NCBI GenBank assembly: GCA_009993045.1
Contig: JAACUG010000098.1
Coordinates: forward strand, 1 to 48,082
Source of the DNA: Cyanobacteria bacterium CG_2015-22_32_23
Lineage (GTDB): Bacteria; Cyanobacteriota; Cyanobacteriia; Cyanobacteriales; Cyanobacteriaceae
Length of the DNA: 48,082 nt
Direction: 5' to 3'
Shown here: positions 22,590-40,712 of the stretch, in pieces
How the letters are laid out: each line of letters begins with the position of its first letter
Numbering within the stretch: position 1 is the first letter of the stretch
The notes under the pieces: model-generated
The model's input: the letters and a program-made list of their open reading frames with translations, nothing else
Databases searched by the model: none
What the model was told of the DNA's origin: nothing
Made by a program: the position numbers and the translations under genes

Positions 22590-23108
22590 ATGTACGACGC
22601 ATTCACAAGGGTTGTTTCTCAAGCTGACGCACGTGGTGAGTTCTTAAGCTCTAGCCAAATCGATGCTTTAAGCCAAATGGTAAGTGACAGCAACAAACGT
22701 ATTGATACTGTAAATCGTATCACCAGCAACGCTTCTGCTATCGTTACCAACGCTGCTCGTTCTTTATTTGCTGAGCAACCTCAATTAATCGCACCCGGCG
22801 GAAATGCTTATACTAGCCGTCGTATGGCTGCTTGTCTTCGTGACATGGAAATCATCTTACGTTACGTTACCTACGCTATTTTCTCTGGTGACGCTTCCGT
22901 ATTAGAAGATCGTTGTTTAAATGGACTTCGTGAAACCTACTTAGCTTTAGGTACTCCTGGTTCTTCCGTAGCTGTTGGCGTTCAAAAAATGAAAGATGCA
23001 GCTATTGCGATCGCTAATGATACCAACAATATTACCCTTGGTGATTGTAGTTCTTTAATGGCTGAAGTTGCTACTTACTTTGATCGTGCTGCTGCTGCAG
23101 TTGCATAG
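22590..23108 (+). CDS. cpcB: C-phycocyanin beta subunit
   Basis: A 172-residue beta phycocyanin, a rod component of the phycobilisome on the thylakoid surface. Phycocyanobilin attachment cysteines C82 (MAACLRD) and C153 (GDCSS) are both present, with N72, the site methylated in this family. Codons are those of a highly expressed gene, clearly less AT-driven than its neighbours. It begins MYDAF where many homologues have MFDVF or MFDAF. It pairs with cpcA 68 bases downstream. Confidence 0.98.
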
Positions 23109-23176
23109 GTATAACCATACCAATTAAGTTCAATTAATTCACATAACATAATATAATTTAGGAGAAATAAATCACA

Positions 23177-23665
23177 ATGAAAACCCCTTTAACTGAAGCA
23201 GTATCAGCAGCAGATTCTCAAGGACGTTTCTTAAGCAGCACCGAACTTCAAACCGCTTTCGGTCGTTTTCGTCAAGCAACCGCAGGTTTACAAGCCGCTA
23301 AATCCTTAACCGATAACGCACAACGTTTAGTTGATGGTGCAGCAAATGCAGTTTACAACAAATTTCCTTACACCACCACAACTTCTGGTGCTAACTTCGC
23401 TTCTACTGCCGAAGGTAAAGCAAAATGTTCTCGTGACATCGGTTACTACTTACGCATGGTAACATACTGTTTAGTAGCTGGTGGAACTGGTCCTATGGAT
23501 GAGTACTTAATCGCTGGTATTGATGAAATCAACCGTAGTTTTGACTTATCTCCTAGCTGGTATGTTGAAGCATTAAAATACATCAAAGCTAACCATGGTT
23601 TAAGTGGTGATTCTGCTGTTGAAGCTAACTCCTACCTCGACTACGCTATCAACGCTCTTAGCTAG
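23177..23665 (+). CDS. cpcA: C-phycocyanin alpha subunit
   Basis: A 162-residue alpha phycocyanin with the single bilin cysteine C84 (AKCSRD). It forms the alpha-beta monomer with CpcB and stacks into phycobilisome rods. An AGGAG site sits 12 bases before the ATG. Rod-linker genes (cpcC, cpcD) and lyase genes (cpcE, cpcF), which often follow, are absent; instead the helicase-nuclease gene begins about 250 bases on. Confidence 0.98.
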
Positions 23666-23855: not shown

Positions 23856-23869
23856 TTGTATTAATACAA
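23856..23869. promoter_or_regulatory. 14-bp perfect palindrome, candidate operator of the helicase-nuclease operon
   Basis: TTGTATTAATACAA is a perfect palindrome centred 54 bases before the ATG at 23917. Candidate -10 boxes follow it (TATGCT at 23871, GATAAT at 23885). A dimeric repressor site fits the TGTA-N4-TACA shape. No regulator gene adjoins it, so the binding protein is unknown. Confidence 0.45.
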
Positions 23870-23916
23870 GTATGCTATCATTAGGATAATTAAAAGTATT
23901 GATCAGAAATAAAATT

Positions 23917-26900
23917 ATGAACAGTTTACAAAATATTTTGGAGAAATACTGTCTTGAGGATAAAACAGGTTTATTGCTTCTGAGTATGCCAACGGGTTTT
24001 GGAAAAACCCATAATGTTTTAGATTTTATTTATCATAATTATCCGCAATTTAAAGCACAAGGTAGAAAAATTATCTTCATTACTAACCTAAAAAAGAATT
24101 TACCTTATCAAGATTTAAAAAAGCGTTTTATTCAAGATAATAAAGAAAAAGAATATCAAGAAAATGTTTTATTTATCAATTCTAATTTAGATTTTGTCAT
24201 TGATAATTTACTAAATTGTGAGATTCCAGAGGATTTTAAAAAGAGTGAAAACTATAAAAAATTATTTAATAAAATAAAACACTTAGAAAATTTAGAGAAA
24301 GATAAAAAAAATATTGATTTAGATTATTTGCAAGGACTAAAAAATGATATTAAGGATAAATATGAACCTAGTTTTAGATATGAGATTATAGAAACTTTAA
24401 AACAAAAATGCAAGAAGAAAGAAAAACGTTTAGAATTAATCAAAAACGATAGTAATTATCAATGGATTGGTAAATTATATCCGACAGTTTTTACCGATAA
24501 TAGAACAGTTTTATTCTTGAGTATAGATAAGTTTTTCTTAAAAAATTCTACTCTTATTGAACCATCTTATTATTGTTATCATAACTTAGCTAAAAATTCT
24601 CTAGTTTTTATTGATGAATTTGACACTACTAAAGATACGATTTTAAATCGAATAATTGAAGAAGGAAACAAACATAAAATTGATTTAATCTCATTATTTT
24701 CTAATATTCATAATAATATTAATAATAGTGAATTTCCTAAATATTTTCTCGAAGAATCTGAGAAAAGACAAAAACAAAAAATATCTCAGAATAAAAATTG
24801 GAAATCTTTAACAGTAATCATAGAAGAATTAAGACAAGAATCTCAAGATATTTATCAAAAATTTAACTTAAAATATGCCTATAAATTGAATATTAATGAT
24901 TCGGATAAATCCAGAAATTTTCTATTTTATGACTATGAAAATCATAATGTTTTAAACCGTGATTATCAATTAATTATCAATACTGATAATGAGGATAATA
25001 TTAATTGGATTAAAAAAGTTAAACATGAAGAAATAGGTTCTCAAAAAAATAAGACAATACCATATTTATTAGGACAAGTAAGAGGTTTTATAACTTATTT
25101 TGAAACAAGAATTAGTTTTTTAGCTGAAAATTATCATAACTTAAAAAAAGAAAAAGGTGACGATATTTATTCCCTTGAATCAGCTATTCGCTCAATTTTA
25201 GATTTTACTTGTAAAGAAGTAGATAAAAAAACTACTGATTGGTTAATGGAAAATATCCTAAAAATTTCCAATTCTTCGGCTAGTATGTCAAAGAATGAAA
25301 AACAAATAAATGAATTTCAAAGTTTTTATGAAGTAGGTTTTAAATATCATGATATTGTGGATAATGATAACCATGATTTAAGCTCTAAAATTTATTTTTA
25401 TAACTTTAATCAGACTCCTGAAGGTTTTTTATGGAAACTATGTCAGCAAGGGATGGTAGTAGGAATTTCTGCTACTGCTAGTATGGATACTAATATTGGT
25501 AATTATGATATTAAATTTTTAAAACAATATCTAAAAAACTCTTTTTATTCCCTTTCGGAAGACGAAATTAATCAATTAAAAAATGAATATGAAGTGATAA
25601 CAAAAGGTTATAATCAAATCGAAATTAAAGCTAAATTTATTGGTACAGAAGATAAAAATGAAGCCTTAGAAATACTTAAAACAATAGTAAAAGATGAAGT
25701 ATGCGCTAATAGTTTACTAACTGAATCTCAAGGAAATAAATATGTTTTTTGTCGTTATGTAAGATTATTAGAAGCATGGCAATATTTTAATCAAAATGAA
25801 GATTGTCAGGCTTTTATTTGCTTTTTAAATAAGTTTCCTAAAGATGATGACTCAAAGTTAGATTTAAAGATAATTAATCCTTATTTTTGTTATGCCAATG
25901 GTTTTGATCCTAATGAAGATAATTTACAATTAATTAAAAAGCAATATGTGATTTTAAGTAGTAAAAACTTTGATGAAGAATTAAAAAAATTAAAGGAAAG
26001 ATTAGCTACAGGTGAAAGAATTTTTATTATTTCTACCTATCAAACTTTAGGTGCAGGAGTTAACTTACAATATACTATCCCCGAAGGTTTTAACGCAGTT
26101 AAAATTAATGATTTTGATGATAGATTAGAAATGGATATTAATGGTGTTTATTTAGAAAACCCAACTAATTTATTAATCACTATTAATAGTAATGAAGAAG
26201 AAAAAAATCAAGATAAAAATTTTATTAAACATCTTTTTCAATTAGAATTTTTATTAGAAAATGGTGTTATGTCTCGCCAACAATTTAAAGGTAAATTAGA
26301 TGAGGCTTTTCATAAATATATCGGAGATAAAAATTATCGCTCAAAAAGTCATATTAAGTTGCCTGAAACTTCTGCTTTTACTAAATATTTAAACAAAGTA
26401 ATTATTCAAGCATTAGGAAGAATTTGTCGTACTAATATGAAAGCCTCAACTATTCATATTTTGGCAGATAGTAGTATCAAAAAATATCTTAATCGTGTTC
26501 AATTACCTTCAGAGATTATTCCCGTTAAAGAATATCAAGAATTAGTGAAAAATTGTAATCAATCGATGATATTTTCAGAAGAAATAAAAGAAGCAAAAAA
26601 TAAAGCTGAAACTACAAGTGAGCAGGATTTTAAGTATATTCAAAATAGATTAAATAATATTTGGGATGCTAAAGATATTGAAAAATGGAAATCCTTAAGA
26701 AAGCAAGTTTTATGTCAGCCAACGATTGTTAATAAATTAGATTGTGAAAAAGAGTGGTTTAAAATTTATATAGAATTATCAAAACCTAATAATTATTACA
26801 GATTTACTCAAACAAATGATTATGGAAAAGTAAAAATTTTCTTTGATAAAAATGAGGGAAATCAAGAAGTAAGTGAAATGTCTGCTAAATTACCAGAATT

Positions 26901-27375
26901 AATGAAAATTGACTTATTAAAAGACTTATTTATTGAGAATAATTGGGCTACTAATTTTGAGAAAGCAGAATTAATAATTAGCCCACCAATTTTTAATAAT
27001 ATTTATAAGGGTGCATTAGGAGAAGTTTGTGGTAAACATATTTTAGAGACCTATTCTGATATTAAACTATTAGAACTTGATGATATTGAATTTGAAAGAT
27101 TTGATTTTAAAACTGCCGATGGTATTTATTTTGACTTTAAATATTGGAATAATTTTGATCAAGATGAAGAAACAGAGTTAGAGAAAATTCGAGCTAAAAT
27201 GACTGAAATTAACGCTCAAAAAGTATTTATTATTAATATTTTAGCCAATACTGATAATTGTGCATTTATCCCTAAGTATCATCAGGAGAAAAAAATAATT
27301 ATCATTCCTTTTCTATGTCAAAATAATAAAATTGTTCCAAAAGCAATAGACTATTTATCCAATAATTTATCATGA
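23917..27375 (+). CDS. SF2 (DinG-like) helicase with C-terminal PD-(D/E)XK nuclease-like domain
   Basis: A 1152-residue protein counted from the ATG at 23917; a TTG 18 bases earlier is less likely. Helicase motifs in order are Walker A MPTGFGKT (24-31), Walker B DEFD (233-236), motif III-like SATA (518-521), TYQTLGAGVN (707-716) and motif VI QALGRICR (831-838). The set resembles DinG/XPD-like SF2 helicases, but only three cysteines lie between motifs I and II, so the four-cysteine iron-sulfur cluster seems absent. The last ~130 residues look like a PD-(D/E)XK nuclease: a helix with E1036 (GALGE), then D1063 and D1073-F-K1075. This predicts an ATP-driven DNA or DNA-RNA unwinding enzyme that also cuts. 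The next gene overlaps by four bases (ATGA), which implies coupled translation. I infer a mobile-element or phage defence role; no defence homologue was verified. Confidence 0.75.
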   Translation: MNSLQNILEKYCLEDKTGLLLLSMPTGFGKTHNVLDFIYHNYPQFKAQGRKIIFITNLKKNLPYQDLKKRFIQDNKEKEYQENVLFINSNLDFVIDNLLNCEIPEDFKKSENYKKLFNKIKHLENLEKDKKNIDLDYLQGLKNDIKDKYEPSFRYEIIETLKQKCKKKEKRLELIKNDSNYQWIGKLYPTVFTDNRTVLFLSIDKFFLKNSTLIEPSYYCYHNLAKNSLVFIDEFDTTKDTILNRIIEEGNKHKIDLISLFSNIHNNINNSEFPKYFLEESEKRQKQKISQNKNWKSLTVIIEELRQESQDIYQKFNLKYAYKLNINDSDKSRNFLFYDYENHNVLNRDYQLIINTDNEDNINWIKKVKHEEIGSQKNKTIPYLLGQVRGFITYFETRISFLAENYHNLKKEKGDDIYSLESAIRSILDFTCKEVDKKTTDWLMENILKISNSSASMSKNEKQINEFQSFYEVGFKYHDIVDNDNHDLSSKIYFYNFNQTPEGFLWKLCQQGMVVGISATASMDTNIGNYDIKFLKQYLKNSFYSLSEDEINQLKNEYEVITKGYNQIEIKAKFIGTEDKNEALEILKTIVKDEVCANSLLTESQGNKYVFCRYVRLLEAWQYFNQNEDCQAFICFLNKFPKDDDSKLDLKIINPYFCYANGFDPNEDNLQLIKKQYVILSSKNFDEELKKLKERLATGERIFIISTYQTLGAGVNLQYTIPEGFNAVKINDFDDRLEMDINGVYLENPTNLLITINSNEEEKNQDKNFIKHLFQLEFLLENGVMSRQQFKGKLDEAFHKYIGDKNYRSKSHIKLPETSAFTKYLNKVIIQALGRICRTNMKASTIHILADSSIKKYLNRVQLPSEIIPVKEYQELVKNCNQSMIFSEEIKEAKNKAETTSEQDFKYIQNRLNNIWDAKDIEKWKSLRKQVLCQPTIVNKLDCEKEWFKIYIELSKPNNYYRFTQTNDYGKVKIFFDKNEGNQEVSEMSAKLPELMKIDLLKDLFIENNWATNFEKAELIISPPIFNNIYKGALGEVCGKHILETYSDIKLLELDDIEFERFDFKTADGIYFDFKYWNNFDQDEETELEKIRAKMTEINAQKVFIINILANTDNCAFIPKYHQEKKIIIIPFLCQNNKIVPKAIDYLSNNLS

Positions 27376-29705
27376 CTATTATTACTAATCGTTTAAAATT
27401 TACCTTTCATCTTGATAATATTAAAAATGATTTTATTTTTCTTGCTTTTAAAAGAATAGATAATAATAGCAGATGGTGGGGTGCAAAAGTATTAGATTCT
27501 CTTTTAGGTGATGAATATAAAGCCTTAGCTGTTTGTTATACAGAAAAATATGCTTTTGCTATGTTTAAAAAACAAGAAAATAATGCTTATAAATTAATAA
27601 CACGACTAAGAAATTATAGCGGTGATGATACACAAGAAAATGAAAAAAAAGAAGATTTTATAGTTAATGAAGTTGAAATAAAAAATCTCAATATCGATAA
27701 TGGTGAAAGTTTTATTGATAGTGAAGCCTTAGCTCGTTTATTATTAAATTATCTTGGTTCATCAAGATCAAAATATCCTAGTCTTCAGTTTTCTAATCTT
27801 ACTGGTTGTTTGTTAAAAGTGCCTAGTTTAAACAGCAATAAATTATATAAATCCATACAAGTTGGAGAAGTAAATCTTAATTATATTAATAATACTGACA
27901 ATGAATTTTTGCTTAATGTGAGTATGGAAACTTATCGTTTAAAAATAGATATTTTCTCTGAATTAAAAACTGCAACAGGTAAACGTAAAATACAAGTCCA
28001 AAAATATTTAAACCGTCCACAATATGTACTATTTGATGGTAACAATATTTTAAGAAGATCCTTGGGAGAAAAAGACAAAAATGATCCGAAAAAAACTTAT
28101 ATTAAAGCAGGAATAAAAGGTAAAAAAACTCATCAAGATTTTCTAAAGTTTAAAAATATAGAAGATTTTAAAAGCAGTAGGGGAGGAATTTTAAATCAAG
28201 TAATTAAGGATATAAAAGAGCATCTTAATAAGTATCTAACAGTAGAGTTTATTCCATTAAAAATTGATGAATGTATTGAGTTTGATTCAAAAAATTTAAT
28301 ATTTAAAAAGCCTGAGAAACTTCATTATATTCTCGATAATCAAAGAATTAATATTGTTGATTTAGTTAAAGATGAAACCTCCCAAAAATTAGTTAATGAT
28401 ATTCAAGAATTATTGAAACCCTTTTTTAAGGATCAAAATTTAGTTTCTATTAATAATCATGAAATTGAAGGAGTTTTTAATCTGAGAATTATTCATGATA
28501 AAAACTATTATCAACGTAATAATATTGAAGATGAATACTTACTATCAGATAAAATTACCCCAAGACAACATTTAACTATTGAATCGGGAGAAAATATCTC
28601 TAAAGCTATTATTAAAACTTTGATTAAAGAATTAATTATCAAACAAGATATTGCGTATAAAAAAATTAGTCTTTTTGATTGGAATAATATCGTACAATCA
28701 TCTCCATCAGCTACTTTTAAATCTAATCAATCAAACAATAAAAATAATACTCAATTAAGTCCTTTTGATTTAGATAAGTTAGAAGATGAAATAAAATCAG
28801 AGAAAAAGTGGATATTTGGGCAATATAAAAAAAATAGTAATAATGAAGATAATCAAGATAATAAGATTTTAATTTTTATGATTATTAATCCAGACGGTAG
28901 TTTTGAATTTGAAAATTTAGATACTCGTGAAAGTTTGTTCAATGATCATAAATATCAAGATTATTACAAGTATATTGAACAATTTGAAAAAAATAAGACA
29001 AAATCATCTTTTCAGTTTGAAGGTTTTGTTATGTCAGATAGTGGCGATATTAATTTAATTTTTCACTCCAATGAAATTACTTTACCTAACTTACCAGAAA
29101 TAGAATATTTATTAAAAGAAATTGAAAAAAAATTACCAGAAAACCTGAACAATGGTTTAGCAATTATTAATATTATTCAAGAATTTTTACCGTTATATCC
29201 TAACTTAAAGAAAAGAAAATTTGAGGATTTTTGTGAACAACTTAAAAATAATTATACTTATGATATATCCAAGAAAGAATTATATAATTTAATTCAACAA
29301 TATTTAGGTTCACAACGTAACCATAACGGAAAAATATCTTATACTGCGAATACTGATGAAGCGACTAAATTTAGAGATTATTTATTAGAAAAATATCAAG
29401 TGAGATTTAGGTTTCCTAAAGATAATGAAACTCTCGATTTTGTATTTGCTAATGCTTTAAATATTAATTATTTTGGTGAAACCGATACCGAAGCCTATTA
29501 TTTTGTAGGCGATCGCACAGAGCAAATTCAAACATCTTTCAAGGATGCTTGTCATATTCGCAAAATTATAGCTATCAAAGGTTGTAAATTAATTTTTAGA
29601 GATTTATTAAAAACGATGGATGTTGACTTTGTACGCACAGGTCAAAGTACGGTAATTCCTTTCCCTTTTAAATATATTCGAGAATATCATAATCTTAATT
29701 ATTAA
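27372..29705 (+). CDS. Unidentified 777-residue partner of the helicase-nuclease
   Basis: I do not recognise this protein. It is soluble, rich in Lys, Asn and Ile, and without signal or membrane segments. Conspicuous segments are VLFDGNN (219-225), which could begin an NYN/PIN-like or other Rossmann-type strand, SSRGGIL near 271-277, NLRIIHDKNYY (D376), TPRQHLTIE (R398, H400, E404), a low-complexity Asn/Lys stretch near 455-500, and a conserved-looking C-terminus RTGQSTVIPFPFKYIREY. Its partner (helicase plus nuclease) and order recall the bacterial pPIWI-RE operons, which couple a PIWI-module protein to a DinG helicase and a restriction-fold nuclease. I therefore raise a divergent guide-binding PIWI-like protein as a hypothesis only. 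The ATG overlaps the upstream stop by four bases. No third gene follows. Confidence 0.7.
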   Translation: MTIITNRLKFTFHLDNIKNDFIFLAFKRIDNNSRWWGAKVLDSLLGDEYKALAVCYTEKYAFAMFKKQENNAYKLITRLRNYSGDDTQENEKKEDFIVNEVEIKNLNIDNGESFIDSEALARLLLNYLGSSRSKYPSLQFSNLTGCLLKVPSLNSNKLYKSIQVGEVNLNYINNTDNEFLLNVSMETYRLKIDIFSELKTATGKRKIQVQKYLNRPQYVLFDGNNILRRSLGEKDKNDPKKTYIKAGIKGKKTHQDFLKFKNIEDFKSSRGGILNQVIKDIKEHLNKYLTVEFIPLKIDECIEFDSKNLIFKKPEKLHYILDNQRINIVDLVKDETSQKLVNDIQELLKPFFKDQNLVSINNHEIEGVFNLRIIHDKNYYQRNNIEDEYLLSDKITPRQHLTIESGENISKAIIKTLIKELIIKQDIAYKKISLFDWNNIVQSSPSATFKSNQSNNKNNTQLSPFDLDKLEDEIKSEKKWIFGQYKKNSNNEDNQDNKILIFMIINPDGSFEFENLDTRESLFNDHKYQDYYKYIEQFEKNKTKSSFQFEGFVMSDSGDINLIFHSNEITLPNLPEIEYLLKEIEKKLPENLNNGLAIINIIQEFLPLYPNLKKRKFEDFCEQLKNNYTYDISKKELYNLIQQYLGSQRNHNGKISYTANTDEATKFRDYLLEKYQVRFRFPKDNETLDFVFANALNINYFGETDTEAYYFVGDRTEQIQTSFKDACHIRKIIAIKGCKLIFRDLLKTMDVDFVRTGQSTVIPFPFKYIREYHNLNY

Positions 29706-30008: not shown

Positions 30009-31490
30009 ATGGGAAAACCAACAGGATTTTTAGAGTTTACAAGGGAATTACCTGTCGATAAAGCTCCCCTTGAAAGAATTAATAATTGGGATGAATTTCA
30101 CTTACATTTGCCCGAAGAAAATCTCCGTAATCAAGGTGCAAGATGTATGGATTGTGGAACACCTTTTTGTCATACAGGAGAACTTATTAGCGGTATGGCT
30201 AGTGGTTGCCCCGTTAATAACTTAATTCCTGAGTGGAATGACTTGATTTATCGAGGTTTATGGCAAGAAGCACTAGATAGACTTCATAAAACTAACAACT
30301 TTCCTGAATTTACTGGTAGAGTTTGCCCTGCTCCTTGTGAGGGTTCTTGTGTACTAGGAATAAATAATCCTCCCGTCACCATCAAAAATATAGAATGTTC
30401 TATTATAGATCACGGTTGGGATCAAGGTTGGGTAAAGCCTCAACCTCCTGAAAAACGTACTGGCAAAAAGATTGCCATTGTAGGCTCAGGCCCTGCAGGT
30501 TTATCGGCGGCGGCACAACTTAATAAAGCAGGACATTCTGTCACGGTTTATGAAAAAGATGATCGCCCTGGTGGATTGTTAATGTATGGCATTCCTAACA
30601 TGAAACTGGATAAAGAAAAAGTTGTCTTGCGTAGGGTGAAACTGTTAGAAGAAGAAGGAGTTAAATTTGTTTGTAATAGTACCATCGGCAAAGACATTCC
30701 AGCGGAAACTTTAGTTAATGATAATGATGCGGTAATTCTTGCTATCGGTGCTGGAAAACCTCGTGATTTACCCATAGAAGGGCGATCGCTCAAAGGGATC
30801 AATTTTGCCATGGACTTCCTCACCGCTAACACTAAAGCCGTTTTAAGTGATAATCCAGAAGAATTTATCTCAGCAAAAGGAAAAGATGTTGTGATTATTG
30901 GCGGTGGTGATACTGGTACAGATTGTGTTGGTACATCTATAAGACATGGTTGCAATAGTGTAACCCAGTTAGAAATCATGCCTCAGCCCCCAGAAATACG
31001 AGCAAAAAACAACCCTTGGCCCGAATATCCGAAAATTTATCGTTTAGATTACGGACAGGAAGAAGCCGCCGCTAAATTCGGTAATGACCCTAGAGTTTAT
31101 ACTACAACTGCCACTAAATTCGAGGGAGACTCCGAAGGTAACGTGATCGCCGTGCATACGGTGGAAGTAGAATGGGCAAGAGATGAGCAAGGGCGTTTTA
31201 CGCCTAATCCCATCAAAGGTACAGAAAAAAGATTACCCGCACAATTAGTCTTACTGGCCATGGGTTTTCTCGGTCCTGAACAGTTATTATTAGAACAAAT
31301 GGGCTTAGAAAAAGATAATCGCAGTAATATCAAAGCCGAATATGGAGAATATGCTACAAGCATCCCCAATGTATTCGCCGCAGGAGATTGTCGCCGAGGT
31401 CAAAGTTTGGTAGTGTGGGCATTTAATGAAGGGCGTGGTGTCGCTAAAGAGTGCGATCGCTTCCTCATGGGATATACCGATTTACCATAA
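30009..31490 (+). CDS. gltD: Glutamate synthase small subunit (GltD)
   Basis: A 493-residue flavoprotein that passes electrons from NAD(P)H to the large glutamate synthase subunit in nitrogen assimilation. The N-terminal iron-sulfur cysteines are C46, C49, C54, C67, C106, C110 and C114. The FAD site is [12 protein letters not shown] near 156-167 and the pyridine nucleotide site [11 protein letters not shown] near 297-307. The large subunit gene is not in the window. A clear terminator follows. Length is usual for the family. Confidence 0.95.
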
Positions 31491-33408: not shown

Positions 33409-36400
33409 ATGAGAACCCAAGAACTGTTACCTGATTTAATCGAAATTCAACGCTCTAGCTATAAATGGTTTTTAGAGTATGGTATTATTGAAGAACTCAA
33501 CAGTTTTACGCCGATAACCGACTATGCAGGTAAATTAGAATTGCACTTCATCGGTGAAAAATATCGACTAAAAGAGCCAAAATACTATATTGAAGAAGCT
33601 AAAAAACGAGATGCTAGTTACTCCGTACAAGTTTATGTCCCTACATTATTATTAAACAAAGAAACAGGAGAACGTAAAGAGCAAGAAGTATTTATCGGTG
33701 ATTTACCTTTAATGACCGATAGAGGTACATTCTTGATTAATGGTGCAGAACGAGTCATTGTCAATCAAATCGTGCGATCGCCCGGAGTTTACTTTAAATC
33801 AGAATTAGACAAAAACGGTAAAAGAACTTACTCCGCTTCTGTGATCCCTAATCGTGGAGCATGGTTAAAATTTGAAACCGATAAACATGGCGTTGTGTGG
33901 GTAAGAATTGATAAAACTCGCAAAATTTCTGCCCAAGTGCTTTTAAAAGCCATGGGATTAAGCGATCGTGAAATATTAGATCGTCTTCGTCACCCCGATT
34001 TTTATCAAAAAACCCTCGAAAAAGAAGGCAATCCCACCACTGACGAGGCGTTAATGGAACTATATCGCAAATTACGTCCGGGAGAACCTCCTACCGTGAG
34101 CGGTGGACAAGCGTTATTAGAAACCCGTTTCTTTGATCCTAAACGTTATGATTTAGGCAAAGTGGGGCGTTATAAAATGAATAAAAAACTACGGTTGACA
34201 GTTCCTTATAATCTCAGGGTTTTAACCGTAGAAGACATCTTATCAGTAGTGGATTATTTAATTAATCTCGAATTTGATATTGGTAACGTTGACGATATTG
34301 ATCACCTTGGAAATCGTCGAGTAAGAAGTGTAGGTGAATTACTCCAAAACCAAGTCAGAGTAGGCTTATCTCGTTTAGAACGTATTATACGAGAAAGAAT
34401 GACGGTAGGAGATCCAAATACCTTAACTCCTGCTGCTCTGGTGAACCCAAAACCTTTAATAGCAGCCATAAAAGAGTTTTTTGGTTCTTCCCAATTATCT
34501 CAGTTTATGGATCAAACTAATCCCCTAGCAGAATTGACCCATAAACGTCGTATTTCAGCTTTAGGGCCTGGTGGTTTAAGTCGAGATAGAGCAGGTTTTG
34601 CCGTTCGAGATATTCACCCTAGTCATTATGGACGTATTTGTCCTGTAGAAACTCCTGAAGGACCAAATGCTGGTTTAATCGGTTCATTAGCTACTTATGC
34701 TCGTGTTAACGAATACGGATTTATTGCCACTCCTTACTACAAAGTCGAAAATGGGAAAGTACGTTGGGATTTAGCGCCTGAATACCTCACCGCCGACGAA
34801 GAAGATGATAAAAGAGTCGCTCCGGGAGATTTATCCACCGATGAAAATGGCGTAATTTTAGGGGAAAGTGTACCCATTCGTTACCGTCAAGAATTTTCTA
34901 CTACTTCACCAACTCAAGTGGATTATGTAGCGGTTTCTCCCGTACAAATCGTTTCTGTAGCTACCTCGATGATTCCTTTCTTAGAGCATGATGACGCTAA
35001 CCGAGCCTTAATGGGATCTAATATGCAACGTCAAGCAGTACCTTTATTACGAGCCCAACGTCCTCTAGTGGGTACTGGGTTAGAAGGTCAAGCCGCACGA
35101 GATTCAGGGATGGTGATTGTTTCCCGTGACTATGGTACAATTACTTACGTTGATGCTAAAAAAATTAAGCTCAAAACTAAAGACAATCACGAAATTGTTT
35201 ATAATCTCCAAAAATACGAACGCTCAAACCAAGACACTTGTTTAAATCAAAAACCTTTAGTGGACGAAGGAGAAGACGTTGTACCCGGACAAGTATTAGC
35301 CGATGGTTCAGCCACTGAAGGAGGAGAATTAGCCCTAGGCCATAATATCACCGTTGCTTATATGCCTTGGGAAGGTTATAACTACGAGGATGCGATTCTT
35401 ATCAGTGAACGGTTAGTACAAGAAGATATTTATACAACTATTCACATTGAAAAGCACGAAATTGAAGCTCGTCAAACTAAATTAGGACCTGAAGAAATCA
35501 CCCGTGAAATTCCTAACGTGGGAGAAGATTCTCTCTTAAACCTTGATGAACAGGGTATTATCAGGGTTGGTGCTTGGGTAGAATCTGGAGATATTTTAGT
35601 AGGTAAAGTTACCCCTAAAGGTGAATCAGATCAACCTCCTGAAGAAAAATTATTACGCGCCATTTTCGGCGAAAAAGCCAGAGATGTTCGTGATAATTCC
35701 TTACGTCTTCCTAACGGAGAAAAAGGACGGGTTGTTTATGTGCGAGTATTTACCAGAGAACAAGGGGATGAATTACCCCCGGGTGCAAATATGGTAGTAA
35801 GGGTTTATATCGCCCAAAAACGCAAAATCCAAGTCGGGGATAAAATGGCAGGGCGACACGGTAATAAAGGGATTATTTCCCGTATTTTAGCCCGTCAAGA
35901 TATGCCTTATTGCCCTGATGGAAGCCCCGTTGACATTGTCTTAAATCCTCTGGGTGTACCTTCTCGGATGAACGTGGGACAAGTGTTTGAATGCCTTTTA
36001 GGTTGGGCTGGTGAACATTTAGGCTACCGCTTTAAAATGACTCCCTTTGACGAAATGTACGGAGAAGAAGCCTCTCGTAATACCGTTAATGGTTTGTTAA
36101 AAGAAGCCTCTCAAAAACCGGGTAAAGATTGGGTATTTAATGAAAATGAACCGGGTAAAATCCAACTTTATGATGGTCGCACGGGGGAAGCATTTGATCG
36201 CCCCGTAACAGTGGGTAAAGCCTATATGCTCAAATTAGTTCACTTAGTTGATGATAAAATTCACGCTCGTTCTACAGGTCCTTACTCTTTAGTTACACAA
36301 CAACCCCTCGGTGGTAAAGCTCAACAAGGAGGACAAAGATTTGGAGAAATGGAGGTATGGGCATTAGAGGCTTACGGTGCTGCTTATACTTTACAGGAGT

Positions 36401-36675
36401 TATTAACGGTTAAGTCTGATGATATGCAAGGGCGTAATGAGGCATTAAATGCCATTGTCAAGGGTAGAGCGATTCCTCGCCCTGGTACTCCTGAGTCCTT
36501 TAAAGTACTTCTAAGAGAATTACAATCTCTTGGCTTGGATGTGTCTGTCCATAAAGTATTAGAGGATAACGAGGAAGTTGAAATTAACCTCATGGATTCA
36601 GGTAATCGTACCCCTAAACGTCCTACTTACGAAAACTTAGCGAGTTTAGGTCAAGATGACGACGACGAATATTAA
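33409..36675 (+). CDS. rpoB: RNA polymerase beta subunit
   Basis: A 1088-residue beta subunit, near the cyanobacterial norm. Recognisable blocks are the rifampicin-region motif [20 protein letters not shown] (about 364-383), [19 protein letters not shown], the C-terminal [10 protein letters not shown] and [20 protein letters not shown]. The C-terminus is acidic and lies 140 bases before rpoC2. No sequence resembling rpoC1 lies between or after. Confidence 0.98.
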
Positions 36676-36680
36676 ATTAA

Positions 36681-36701
36681 TTAGGAATTAGGAATTAATT
36701 T
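36681..36701. repeat. Short heptamer repeat between rpoB and rpoC2
   Basis: TTAGGAA, TTAGGAA and TTAATTT lie back to back directly after the rpoB stop, and further ACTCATT/CCTCATT units occur near 36758-36771. Both are STRR-like. No gene fits in this 140-base gap, where many cyanobacteria have rpoC1. Confidence 0.5.
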
Positions 36702-36815
36702 AGTTACCAGTAAACGATTGTTAATTTTATCAAGCATCTGATAACTTCAAAAACTGAATTACTCATTCCTCATTACTTTTACTTATTATCAATTATTAAT
36801 TATCATCTACACAAT

Positions 36816-39800
36816 ATGCCTACAGAGAAAAAAAACCAAACTTTCTATAACACTGTTATCGATAAAGGTGCTCTTAAAAAACTCATTTCTAAAACCTTTA
36901 CTGAATATGGTTCTGCTCGTTGTTCATCGGTTTGTGACAAACTAAAAACCATGGGTTTCCGTTATGCGACTCAAGCCGCAGTTTCTATCAGTATCGAAGA
37001 TTTAAAAGTACCAGACGCTAAAAAAGCCATGTTGGCAGTGGCGGAAAGTACTATCAAAGATACTATTAATCGTTATGCTAATGGTGAAATTACTGAAGTT
37101 GAGCGTTTCCAAAAAGTAATTGATACATGGAATGATACTTCAGAATCTCTTAAAGATGAAGTTGTCCGTAATTTCCGTCAATCTGATCCTCTTAATTCTG
37201 TCTATATGATGGCATTTTCTGGGGCAAGGGGGAACATTAGCCAAGTTCGTCAGTTAGTCGGTATGCGTGGTTTGATGGCTGATCCTCAAGGGGAAATTAT
37301 TGACTTACCCATTAAAACTAATTTTCGTGAAGGATTAACCGTTACAGAATATATTATTTCTTCCTACGGTGCAAGAAAAGGTTTAGTTGATACTGCGTTG
37401 CGTACTGCCGATTCTGGTTATTTAACCCGTCGTTTAGTGGATGTTTCTCAAGATGTCATTATTCGTGAAACTGACTGCGGCACCACAAGAGGGGTAACGG
37501 TTTTACCCATGAAAGATGGAGAACGGACTTTAATTCCTTTGGGCGATCGCCTTTTAGGTCGTGTATTAGCAGAAGATGTGATCAATCCTGCTACGGGGGA
37601 AGTAATTGGTGTTCGTAATCAAGGTATTGATGAACCGTTAGCAAAAGCCATCGGTGAAGCGGTGGAGCAAGTAAAAGTAAGATCTCCTCTTACCTGTGAA
37701 ACTGCCCGTTCTGTCTGTCAAAAATGTTACGGTTGGTCTTTGGCTCATGGTGACTGGGTAAATATGGGTGAAGCTATCGGTATTATTGCAGCCCAATCCA
37801 TCGGTGAACCTGGGACTCAGTTAACCATGCGTACTTTTCACACTGGGGGGGTATTTACAGGGGAAGTTGCTCAACGGATTACCACTCAACGAGCTGGTAC
37901 TATTAAATTTGATAAAAAACTGAAAGTCCGTGATACTCGTACCCGTCATGGAGATCAAAAATTATTAGTAGAAATCGCAGGGAATATTCTTATTGGTGAT
38001 ACAAAAATCAATGTTCCTAAAGATAGTTTATTAGCTGTCAGAGAAGGAGATACCGTCGGAATTGATGATTTATTGGCAGAAGTCATGCCTCAAAAAACCA
38101 GATCGACTGAAAGAGTTACCAAAGATGTTTCTTCAGATTTATCTGGTGAGGTTCAATTTGCTGATGTTTCTCCTGAAAGTCAAACCGATAAACAAAGTAA
38201 TACCACAACGAAGGCAACTCGTAACGGTTTAATTTGGGTTCTCTCCGGACAAGTTTATAATTTACCCCCAGGTGCTGAACCTGTGGTTAAGAATGGTGAT
38301 AAAATTACCGTTGGTTCAGTTTTAGCCGAAACTAAGTTAAAAACTAAAAGTGGTGGGGTTTGTCGTTTCTCTGAAGGTAATCGAGAAATTGAAATTATCA
38401 CCGCCTCTGTGTCTTTAGATCAAGCTGATATTTTCCTTGAACATAACGGTAGTCAACAACAATATGTTATTCATACTCCTAAAGGCGATCGCTTTGCCTT
38501 AAAAGTTGTGCCGGGTACGAAAGTTCAAAATAACCAGATTGTAGCGGAATTAATTGATGATACTTTCCGAACTAATACTGGTGGTATCATGCGTTATGCA
38601 GGACTTGAAACAGGACGAGGCAACCGTAAACAAGGTTATGAAGTTATCAAAGAAGGTACTTTAATTTGGATTCCTGAAGAAAGTCACGAAATTAATAAAG
38701 ACATCTCCTTATTATTAGTGGAAGATGGTCAATATGTGGAAGCTGGTACAGAAGTAGTTAAAGATATTTTCTGTCAATCAAGCGGTATTGTGGAAGTAAT
38801 CCAGAAAAATGATATTTTACGAGAAATCGTTATCAAACCCGGACATTTGTACATGGATTTAGATCCTGATTACTTAGCGACGGTGGAAGATGGAACGATT
38901 ATTCCTCCGGGTACGACTATTACTGACGGTAGTGTCACTGAAGATGAATTTTTAGCGGAATTTGTTGATACTAACGAAGGGGTTGGTTTATTATTGCGTC
39001 CCATGAAACAGTATGAAATCTTTAATACCACTCAGTCTCCTTCCCAAGAGTCTTTAAATAGCGCAGGAGGTGCTATTAATTTACGTCCTGTATTGCGTAC
39101 TTTCTTTAAAGATGGTGAAAGAGTTAAAAGTGTTGAAGGTGTACAACTTGTTACGACTCAATTAGTTTTAGAAACCGTTGAGGGTTTAAGTGCAGATATT
39201 GAATTAATACCCCATGAAATCGAAGAAGATGGTTTCCGTCTGCAAATCGTAGTTTTAGAATCAGTGATGTTACGTCGGGAAATGGAATCCGAGTCGAATA
39301 TTATCACTCGTGTTCTAGTTACTGATGGCCAAGAAATCTCTCCGGGTGAAGTAGTAGGTACAACGGAAATTCTTTGTTTAGAAAATGGCACTATTCAAGG
39401 GATTCGAGAAGGTGTTGAAGCCATCCGTCGTATTTTAGTTGTCCGAGAAGATGATAATGTTGACATCGAATTTGATGCTGATATAAAACTACAGAAAAAA
39501 GTAGGAAATTATGTTACTCAAAGTGACTATTTAGATGTCGATAAAACAATCTCTTTCCCCGAATCGGGTATAATTACAAACATAGAGAAAGGAAAGTTAA
39601 CCTTACGTTACGCTCGTCCTTATCGTGTATCACCCGGTGCGATTCTCCATATTGAACAAGGAGACTTAGTACAACGAGGAGATAACTTAGTATTACTGGT
39701 ATTTGAACGAGCAAAAACTGGGGATATTGTTCAAGGTTTACCGAGAATTGAGGAATTACTTGAAGCTCGTAAACCCAAAGAACCAGCTTTATTATCTCGC

Positions 39801-40712
39801 AGACCGGGTATTTGTCAAGTAGAATATCGAGAAGATGAAGCTATTGACGTAAAAATTATTGAAGATGATGGTACTATTTCAGAGTATCCTCTCAACCAAA
39901 ACCAGAATATCATCGTTAATGATAATCAACGAGTAGAAGTAGGCGAACCTTTAACCGATGGTTTACCTAGCCCCCATGAAATGTTAGAAGTATTCTATGG
40001 ATATTATCAGGAACATATGGGGATGTATGATGCGGCTTTGGCAGCATTACAAAAAGCTCAATTATTCTTAGTCAATCAAGTACAAGGGGTTTATCAATCT
40101 CAAGGTATTGATATTTCTGATAAACATATTGAAGTAATTGTACGTCAAATGACCTCTAAAGTGAGGGTTGATGATGGTGGTGATACTATTCGCTTACCCG
40201 GGGAATTAGTAGAATTACGAGAAATTGCCAAAGATAACGAAACTGTTGCTATTACTGGTGGCGCACCCATACAATATACTCCGATGCTCATGGGTATTAC
40301 TAAATCTAGTTTAAATACTGATAGCTTTATTTCGGCAGCTAGTTTCCAAGAAACCACCAGAGTATTAACAGAAGCCGCCATCGAAGGTAAAACAGACTGG
40401 TTACGAGGTTTGAAAGAAAACGTTATTATCGGTCGTTTAATCCCCGCAGGTACGGGTTATAATGCCTATGATCAACATCTTGACTGGGATGATCCCGAAC
40501 CCATCGTTAATAATATAATTTCTTATAGTGATCCTTTAGATCAAGATGAGATAAACACTTTGTCTATCAGAGATAATGAAGATGTCATTATTGATGATCA
40601 AGTAGCCAGAGTTTTGTCTCCTGAAGAGTCTATTCTTTATGATGATGATTATGATGTCAGCGATGACAATGATTATGAAGAGGATGATTATGAGGAGGAT
40701 ATTGACGAATAG
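36816..40712 (+). CDS. rpoC2: RNA polymerase beta' subunit (C-terminal half), RpoC2
   Basis: A 1298-residue cyanobacterial RpoC2. The zinc cysteines are C221, C294, C301 and C304, and the trigger-loop helix [20 protein letters not shown] starts near 317. The large insertion between the trigger-loop halves (about 345-945), typical of cyanobacterial beta', is present. The last ~40 residues are extremely acidic (many Asp and Glu). It pairs with rpoB but not with rpoC1, which must be elsewhere in the genome. Confidence 0.98.

What the first reader, a model, noticed from the sequence alone, without database searches (positions are those of the whole stretch)
23917..29705. Two-gene helicase-nuclease plus unknown-partner module: candidate defence system
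A 1152-residue DinG/SF2-like helicase with a C-terminal PD-(D/E)XK-like nuclease (E1036, D1063, D1073-x-K1075) overlaps by four bases a 777-residue protein I cannot assign. Seen: the motifs, the ATGA overlap and isolation from other genes. Known: bacterial pPIWI-RE operons join a PIWI-module protein, a restriction-fold nuclease and a DinG-family helicase. Inferred: this may be a compact form of such a system, with nuclease and helicase fused, or a new helicase-nuclease defence type.
Basis: partly seen in the sequence, partly recalled or inferred. Interest (0 to 1): 0.85.

Follow-up and report, generated by a model that had tools for sequence, protein, structure and literature searches.

The report
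Cyanobacterial DdmDE plasmid-defence operon
These two overlapping cyanobacterial genes are a previously known kind of plasmid-destroying defence system (DdmDE): a DNA-guided Argonaute-like protein that is expected to call in a helicase-nuclease to cut up invading plasmids.

Summary
In detail: two intact genes (1152 and 777 codons) overlap by ATGA at 27372-27375 and stand apart from their neighbours. Gene 1 is DdmD (PADLOC DdmD 2e-45; solved DdmD 1.7e-46; fold). Walker A/B, helicase motif VI and the nuclease residues E1036, D1063, D1073, K1075 are invariant in 25 aligned sequences; the DdmE slicer site looks degraded. The pair is rare and nomadic: 9 of 386 genomes of the phylum, both genes in each, and the same-genus copy lies at another locus, sharing only the two genes. 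Relatives occur in other cyanobacteria, methane-cycling archaea, Bacteroidota and Firmicutes. Expected mechanism: DNA-guided recognition by DdmE, then DdmD attack on plasmids; shown in print for other species, inferred here. New member of a known kind.

The parts
23917..27375 (+). ddmD: SF2 helicase plus C-terminal PD-(D/E)XK-type nuclease, 1152 aa
   Evidence: PADLOC DdmD 2e-45; PDB DdmD 9ix4 1.7e-46 over residues 16-1113 and 8u0u 1.2e-45 over 301-1136; profile 4.5e-127; Foldseek rows 1-21 all from DdmD or DdmDE entries
23989..24009 (+). Walker A region (PTGFGKT, residues 25-31)
   Evidence: P25, T26, G27, G29, K30, T31 invariant in 25 sequences
24607..24624 (+). Walker B/DEAH-like box (FIDEFD, residues 231-236)
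   Evidence: F231 to D236 invariant in 25 sequences
26407..26430 (+). helicase motif VI (QALGRICR, residues 831-838; motif name recalled)
   Evidence: Q831, A832, G834, R835, R838 invariant in 25 sequences
27022..27141 (+). nuclease active-site residues E1036, D1063, D1073-x-K1075
   Evidence: invariant in 25 sequences; helix/strand placement in the model
27372..27375 (+). ATGA stop/start overlap of ddmD and ddmE
27372..29705 (+). ddmE: Argonaute-like guide protein with a degraded slicer site, 777 aa
   Evidence: PDB DdmE 9iw3 2.8e-14; profile 9e-45 and 8.1e-24 to L. casei and Vibrio DdmE; model pLDDT 78.7, first 6 Foldseek rows all DdmE
28536..28643 (+). putative MID guide-5'-end pocket of DdmE: Y389, Q399, K419/K424
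   Evidence: Q399 in 25 of 27, Y or H389 in 27 of 27, K419 in 24 of 27, E420, K424 and D426 in 27 of 27; assignment to the pocket is inferred from general Argonaute knowledge

Best explanation
A two-gene DdmDE plasmid-defence operon in a cyanobacterium. DdmE, an Argonaute-fold protein with a degraded slicer site, most likely loads short single-stranded DNA guides, pairs with matching plasmid DNA, and recruits DdmD. DdmD, held as an autoinhibited dimer in the characterised systems, then loads on the displaced strand, moves along it 5' to 3' by its SF2 helicase, and nicks or degrades it with its PD-(D/E)XK domain, so that small multicopy plasmids are lost. Shown here: gene identity, fold, conservation of the catalytic residues of DdmD, lack of a conserved slicer site in DdmE, pairing of the two genes in all nine cyanobacterial genomes of the sample that carry either, accessory and mobile distribution. 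Inferred from Vibrio cholerae and L. casei work: guide type, recruitment, autoinhibition, plasmid loss.
For: Gene 1: PADLOC DdmD 2e-45; solved DdmD 9ix4 1.7e-46 over 16-1113 and Vibrio DdmD 1.2e-45 over 301-1136; profile 4.5e-127 and 2.8e-103; fold. Gene 2: the only PDB hits of the family profile at E up to 10 are four DdmE sequences, 9e-45 to 8.7e-24; the best runs over 2-694 of 700 profile positions; VIA Z 14.6-18.6 for six DdmE entries against at most 12.0 for other Argonautes. The same nine of 386 genomes for each gene. DNA homology to the same-genus copy covers 23907-29697, i.e. the two genes alone, at another locus. Mechanism of the family: passages of PMC12409362.
Against: PADLOC's DdmE model does not hit the window protein and hits only 7 of 27 family members; DdmE here is 16-19% identical to solved DdmE in structural alignment, so details may differ. 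In six of 51 related loci a full-length DdmD has no detectable DdmE, so the pair is not obligate across the whole family. Plasmid loss in any cyanobacterium is untested here. Some copies lie on large plasmids or secondary contigs (G167, G308), so it cannot act on every plasmid.
Confidence: 0.93

Rival explanations
1. An ApsAB-like or intermediate anti-plasmid system: ApsA is a DdmD-related helicase-nuclease and ApsB a different Argonaute-like partner; ApsAB-like systems are reported in cyanobacteria.
For: [quoted passage not shown]
Against: Gene 2 matches DdmE by sequence profile and fold, whereas that paper reports no sequence similarity between ApsB and DdmE and different predicted structures. 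ApsB itself was not compared here, because I had no ApsB sequence.
Confidence: 0.05
2. One reading: a compact pPIWI-RE-type system with nuclease and helicase fused.
For: Same parts list in outline: PIWI/Argonaute fold, DinG-like helicase fold and restriction-type nuclease.
Against: No pPIWI-RE family among the Pfam matches of 27 gene-2 sequences or of the window proteins; full-length homology to DdmD and DdmE.
Confidence: 0.01
3. A housekeeping DNA repair pair rather than defence.
For: DinG/XPD-type helicases among structural neighbours.
Against: Present in 9 of 386 phylum genomes and 2 of 5 genus genomes, another locus in the same-genus copy, decayed copies.
Confidence: 0.01

Closest known systems
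DdmDE of Lactobacillus casei (PDB 9ix4, 9iw3, 9ixm)
   Same: Closest solved relative of both proteins by sequence; same domain order; DdmE C-terminus alike (PFPFKYIREY against PYPVKYLREY).
   Different: Only about 18-22% identical in structural alignment; the window DdmE has a low-confidence stretch (442-476), most of which is absent from the seven cyanobacterial relatives of alignment A2.
DdmDE of Vibrio cholerae (PDB 8u0u, 8u0j, 9ezy and others)
   Same: Helicase-nuclease plus inactive Argonaute-like protein; fold of both.
   Different: Weaker sequence match for DdmE (0.037 alone, 8.1e-24 by profile); there it lies in a pathogenicity island (PMC12409362 passages), here between ordinary chromosomal genes.
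ApsAB of Escherichia coli
   Same: Related helicase-nuclease plus Argonaute-like partner, anti-plasmid (PMC11096173 passages).
   Different: Partner protein reported there as unlike DdmE in sequence and predicted structure; gene 2 here is DdmE-like.
pPIWI-RE systems
   Same: PIWI-fold protein, DinG-type helicase and restriction-fold nuclease acting together (recalled, also from the finding).
   Different: Separate genes and a different PIWI family (recalled); no Pfam match here.

Membership tests
DdmDE | DdmD: SF2 helicase with Walker A/B and motif VI | tested here: met
   PADLOC DdmD 2e-45; motifs invariant in 25 sequences
DdmDE | DdmD: C-terminal PD-(D/E)XK nuclease | tested here: met
   E1036, D1063, D1073, K1075 invariant in 25 sequences; secondary structure fits; full-length fold match to DdmD
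DdmDE | DdmE: Argonaute-like fold homologous to known DdmE | tested here: met
   9iw3 2.8e-14, profile 9e-45, Foldseek E 1.3e-29 to 7.5e-22 for six DdmE rows, Z 14.6-18.6. PADLOC's own DdmE model misses the window protein
DdmDE | DdmE slicer site inactive | tested here: met
   No acid at the strand-1 position in the window (Y485-K486-K487); position 770, where I place the last tetrad residue, is R in 25 of 27. Placement is my reading of alignment and model, not a superposition; 17 of 27 have D at 486
DdmDE | Two-gene operon, ddmD then ddmE | tested here: met
   ATGA overlap; both genes in the same 9 of 386 genomes; DdmE match in 40 of 51 related loci
DdmDE | DNA guides, DdmD recruitment from an autoinhibited dimer, plasmid loss | not testable with these tools
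   Known for V. cholerae (PMC12409362 passages)
ApsAB | Partner related to ApsB with conserved MID Y-K-Q-K motif | tested here: inconclusive
   No ApsB sequence was at hand; gene 2 matches DdmE, reported as dissimilar to ApsB. Y/H389, Q399, K424 are conserved here
pPIWI-RE | PIWI protein of the pPIWI-RE Pfam families (their presence in Pfam is recalled) | tested here: not met
   0 Pfam families for either window protein at E up to 10; none of the 18 families listed for 27 gene-2 sequences is pPIWI-RE

The most novel reading that the evidence does not exclude
A cyanobacterial-archaeal branch of DdmDE with its own DdmE type works as a nomadic two-gene weapon that excludes small plasmids while sparing large ones, and is itself carried on large plasmids as a weapon against rival plasmids. 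Hints only: five carriers with at most seven contigs have no secondary contig under 35.9 kb, while four of ten non-carriers looked at have contigs of 4.7-29.1 kb (not significant); one copy is on a 292-kb Nostoc plasmid.
Probability: 0.25. Interest if true: 0.5.

Novelty: new member of a known kind. Interest (0 to 1): 0.3.

Why it matters
It gives a name and a likely mechanism to two genes whose relatives are annotated as hypothetical proteins, and documents DdmDE in cyanobacteria with near relatives in methane-cycling archaea. Cyanobacteria often carry plasmids and are engineered with small ones (general knowledge), so a plasmid-removing system bears on why some strains refuse replicating vectors. 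Copies on large plasmids make the open question of how DdmDE chooses its targets testable in a natural setting.

Tried and rejected
pPIWI-RE: rejected on Pfam and homology. Housekeeping: rejected on distribution. Viral carriage: a scan of viral contigs gave 173 pattern matches but no relative. A 14-bp palindrome at 23856-23869, 61 bp before ddmD (1 found, 0.07 expected), looked like an operator, but none of 16 other loci, the close relatives G187 and G119 among them, has a perfect palindrome of 12 bp or more in the 150 bp before ddmD, so I drop it. Promoter-like sites show no excess (52 found, mean 47.9 in shuffles); terminator-like sites are 3 against 0.9, none right after ddmE on the + strand. 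Flanking direct repeats: longest is 11 bp in AT-rich DNA, not convincing as a target-site duplication. Synteny with genus relatives: homology around cpcBA ends just past cpcA in all four, so no empty site could be read. Plasmid-size comparison: 0 of 5 carriers against 4 of 10 non-carriers with a contig under 30 kb; by my own hand calculation, no call, one-sided Fisher about 0.15, so not significant. Contigs are not proven plasmids. I took only genomes that or 24 listed, left out three listed non-carriers with at most ten contigs (G042, G054, G068), and left out the four carriers in 40 or more contigs (G000, G030, G074, G193). Defence-gene enrichment around the operon was not scored. The first genome-contig scan with the single protein gave nothing; the alignment worked.

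Literature: in the listings of five searches I saw no paper whose title or shown abstract is about a cyanobacterial DdmDE: 'DdmDE' (25 papers, 24 listed), 'DdmD/DdmE/plasmid' (150, 30 listed), 'DdmDE/prokaryotic Argonaute/cyanobacteria' (34, 20 listed), 'Argonaute/anti-plasmid/cyanobacteria/DdmDE' (5), 'ApsAB/plasmid/Argonaute' (2). I opened passages of four of them only. PMC11096173 mentions ApsAB-like systems in some cyanobacteria; its tree also holds DdmD-like proteins whose taxa I did not see, so cyanobacterial DdmDE may already be in its supplement.
Full report
Observation. The two ORFs are real and intact: 23917-27375 (1152 aa) and 27372-29705 (777 aa), overlapping by ATGA. They lie between two phycocyanin genes, cpcB and cpcA (22590-23665; names recalled from the sequence), and a glutamate-synthase-small-subunit-like gene at 30009 (name recalled). 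Their G+C is 24.2% and 24.8% against 32.7% for the window and 42-43% for the three nearest genes.

Identity of gene 1. Pfam has no match to the window protein, but PADLOC's DdmD does (2e-45, residues 158-1134) and so do solved DdmD proteins (9ix4 1.7e-46; Vibrio 8u0u 1.2e-45). A profile of 25 sequences reaches 4.5e-127 and 2.8e-103. The AlphaFold2 model (pLDDT 82.3, pTM 0.70) matches chains of DdmD or DdmDE entries in Foldseek rows 1-21 (E 2.7e-52 to 6.6e-18); DinG follows at 3.5e-09.

Identity of gene 2. phmmer finds L. casei DdmE (2.8e-14) and, weakly, Vibrio DdmE (0.037). A profile of 27 sequences finds four PDB sequences up to E 10, all DdmE (9e-45 to 8.7e-24), with the match to L. casei DdmE covering positions 2-694 of 700. 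The model (pLDDT 78.7, pTM 0.78) has six DdmE rows at the top of Foldseek (1.3e-29 to 7.5e-22), then Argonautes (4.8e-07 and weaker); VIA-align Z is 14.6-18.6 for DdmE and at most 12.0 for other Argonautes. PADLOC's DdmE model misses the window protein and hits 7 of 27 family members, so the protein is divergent; relatives are annotated as hypothetical.

Slicer site. In the window the end of the first PIWI strand reads Y485-K486-K487; 17 of 27 sequences have D at 486, but position 770, which I align with the last residue of the Argonaute tetrad, is R in 25 of 27, and position 556 varies (D 15, E 5, N 5, others 2). I read this as an inactive slicer, as reported for DdmE (PMC12409362 passages). 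The putative guide pocket (Y or H389 in 27 of 27, Q399 in 25, K424 in 27) is kept. These placements rest on alignment and general Argonaute knowledge, not on a superposition.

Distribution. DdmD: 9 of 386 genomes of the phylum (8 of 142 genera); DdmE: 9 of 386, the same nine handles; one of the nine (G030, whose contig has the same length as one of Cylindrospermum sp. FACHB-282) is broken. In the genus, 2 of 5. In genome contigs, 51 loci: Cyanobacteria, methane-cycling archaea (Methanolobus, Methanoculleus, Methanosarcina, Methanoperedens; 45-47% identity), Bacteroidota, Firmicutes and a few others. A DdmE match, whole or partial, lies in 40 of 51; of the other 11, five (L087, L092, L095, L110, L111) have under 500 bases of contig left after DdmD and cannot tell, and six (L093, L094, L099, L100, L109, L114) have 4 kb or more but none, nor elsewhere in their genomes (0 of 6, with 2 of 2 controls found). 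These six are MAGs of unstated completeness, and a very divergent DdmE could be missed. Seven loci have DdmD split or cut short (L080, L089, L103, L106, L107, L111, L112); some may be assembly errors.

Tree. In a 49-row DdmD tree (quick method, SH-aLRT only) the window groups with the same-genus, same-family and Prochloron copies (4 rows, support 100), and five archaeal rows form a clade (98) inside a set of 21 rows (99) whose other members are cyanobacterial. That suggests transfer between cyanobacteria and methane-cycling archaea; the root is a midpoint and the direction is unknown. The three most distant plasmid rows have very long branches and unsure places.

Mobility. DNA homology to the same-genus copy runs 23907-29697 and no further on either side, and that copy sits at another locus (3.84 Mb, whereas its cpcBA is at 3.12 Mb). 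Between these two genomes only the two genes are shared there. Copies off the main chromosome: Nostoc sp. UHCC 0926 plasmid pn2 (292 kb) and G308 contig 2 (332 kb beside a 4.2-Mb contig).

Plasmid content. Five carriers with at most seven contigs (G187, G022, G119, G308, G167) have no secondary contig under 35.9 kb. Of ten non-carriers looked at, four (G145, G386, G109, G058) have contigs of 4.7-29.1 kb, two (G056, G064) only larger ones, and four (G002, G014, G051, G066) are one contig. This agrees with removal of small plasmids, but the numbers are too small and the sample was not drawn at random.

Mechanism. From PMC12409362 (passages): DdmE binds single-stranded DNA guides, finds the plasmid, recruits DdmD; the DdmD dimer opens, loads on the non-target strand, moves 5' to 3' and cuts; mainly small plasmids are hit. 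I expect the same here. Shown: parts, fold, catalytic residues, pairing. Inferred: guides, recruitment, plasmid loss.

Verdict. An intact member of a known anti-plasmid system in a cyanobacterium.

Noticed in passing
L109:7914-13423 (Owenweeksia MAG): A full-length DdmD without DdmE forms a tight run with an N6 DNA methylase gene (410 aa, Pfam N6_Mtase 5.1e-49) and a Hypoth_Ymh protein, with gaps of 8-9 bases: possibly a DdmD effector paired with a methyltransferase instead of an Argonaute. In 196 genomes of its order the only match was itself.
   Followed up: partly
L093, L094, L099, L100, L114 (Firmicutes MAGs): Full-length DdmD genes without a detectable DdmE nearby or in the genome; L093 has an N6 methylase downstream, L114 two genes that look like cytosine methyltransferases and L094 genes that look like a CBASS set upstream (both my reading, untested).
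   Followed up: partly
L060:3324-9328 (Persicobacter plasmid pPP11): A distant DdmD-like gene with an overlapping partner on a 46-kb plasmid directly after ParA/ParB genes; similar pairs on a L. intestinalis plasmid near its replication gene (L062) and on Cetobacterium p6 (L061): possible anti-plasmid systems carried by plasmids. The partners were only aligned (17-23% identity), not tested as DdmE.
   Followed up: partly
L084:13506-18148 (Cesiribacteraceae): ddmE is split by two genes on the other strand that look like IstA/IstB of an IS21 element (recalled, not searched): a copy switched off by a transposon.
   Followed up: partly
window 33409-40712: rpoB is followed directly by an rpoC2-like gene (Pfam Rpb1 domains 3-5) with no rpoC1 between them; a separate rpoC1 is recalled for Synechocystis 6803.
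   Followed up: no
window 23856-23869: Perfect 14-bp palindrome TTGTATTAATACAA 61 bp before ddmD; no palindrome of 12 bp or more at that place in 16 other ddmDE loci.
   Followed up: yes
PMC12904381 (passages): This review calls DdmE the nuclease-helicase and DdmD the Argonaute in one passage, the reverse of PMC12409362.
   Followed up: no
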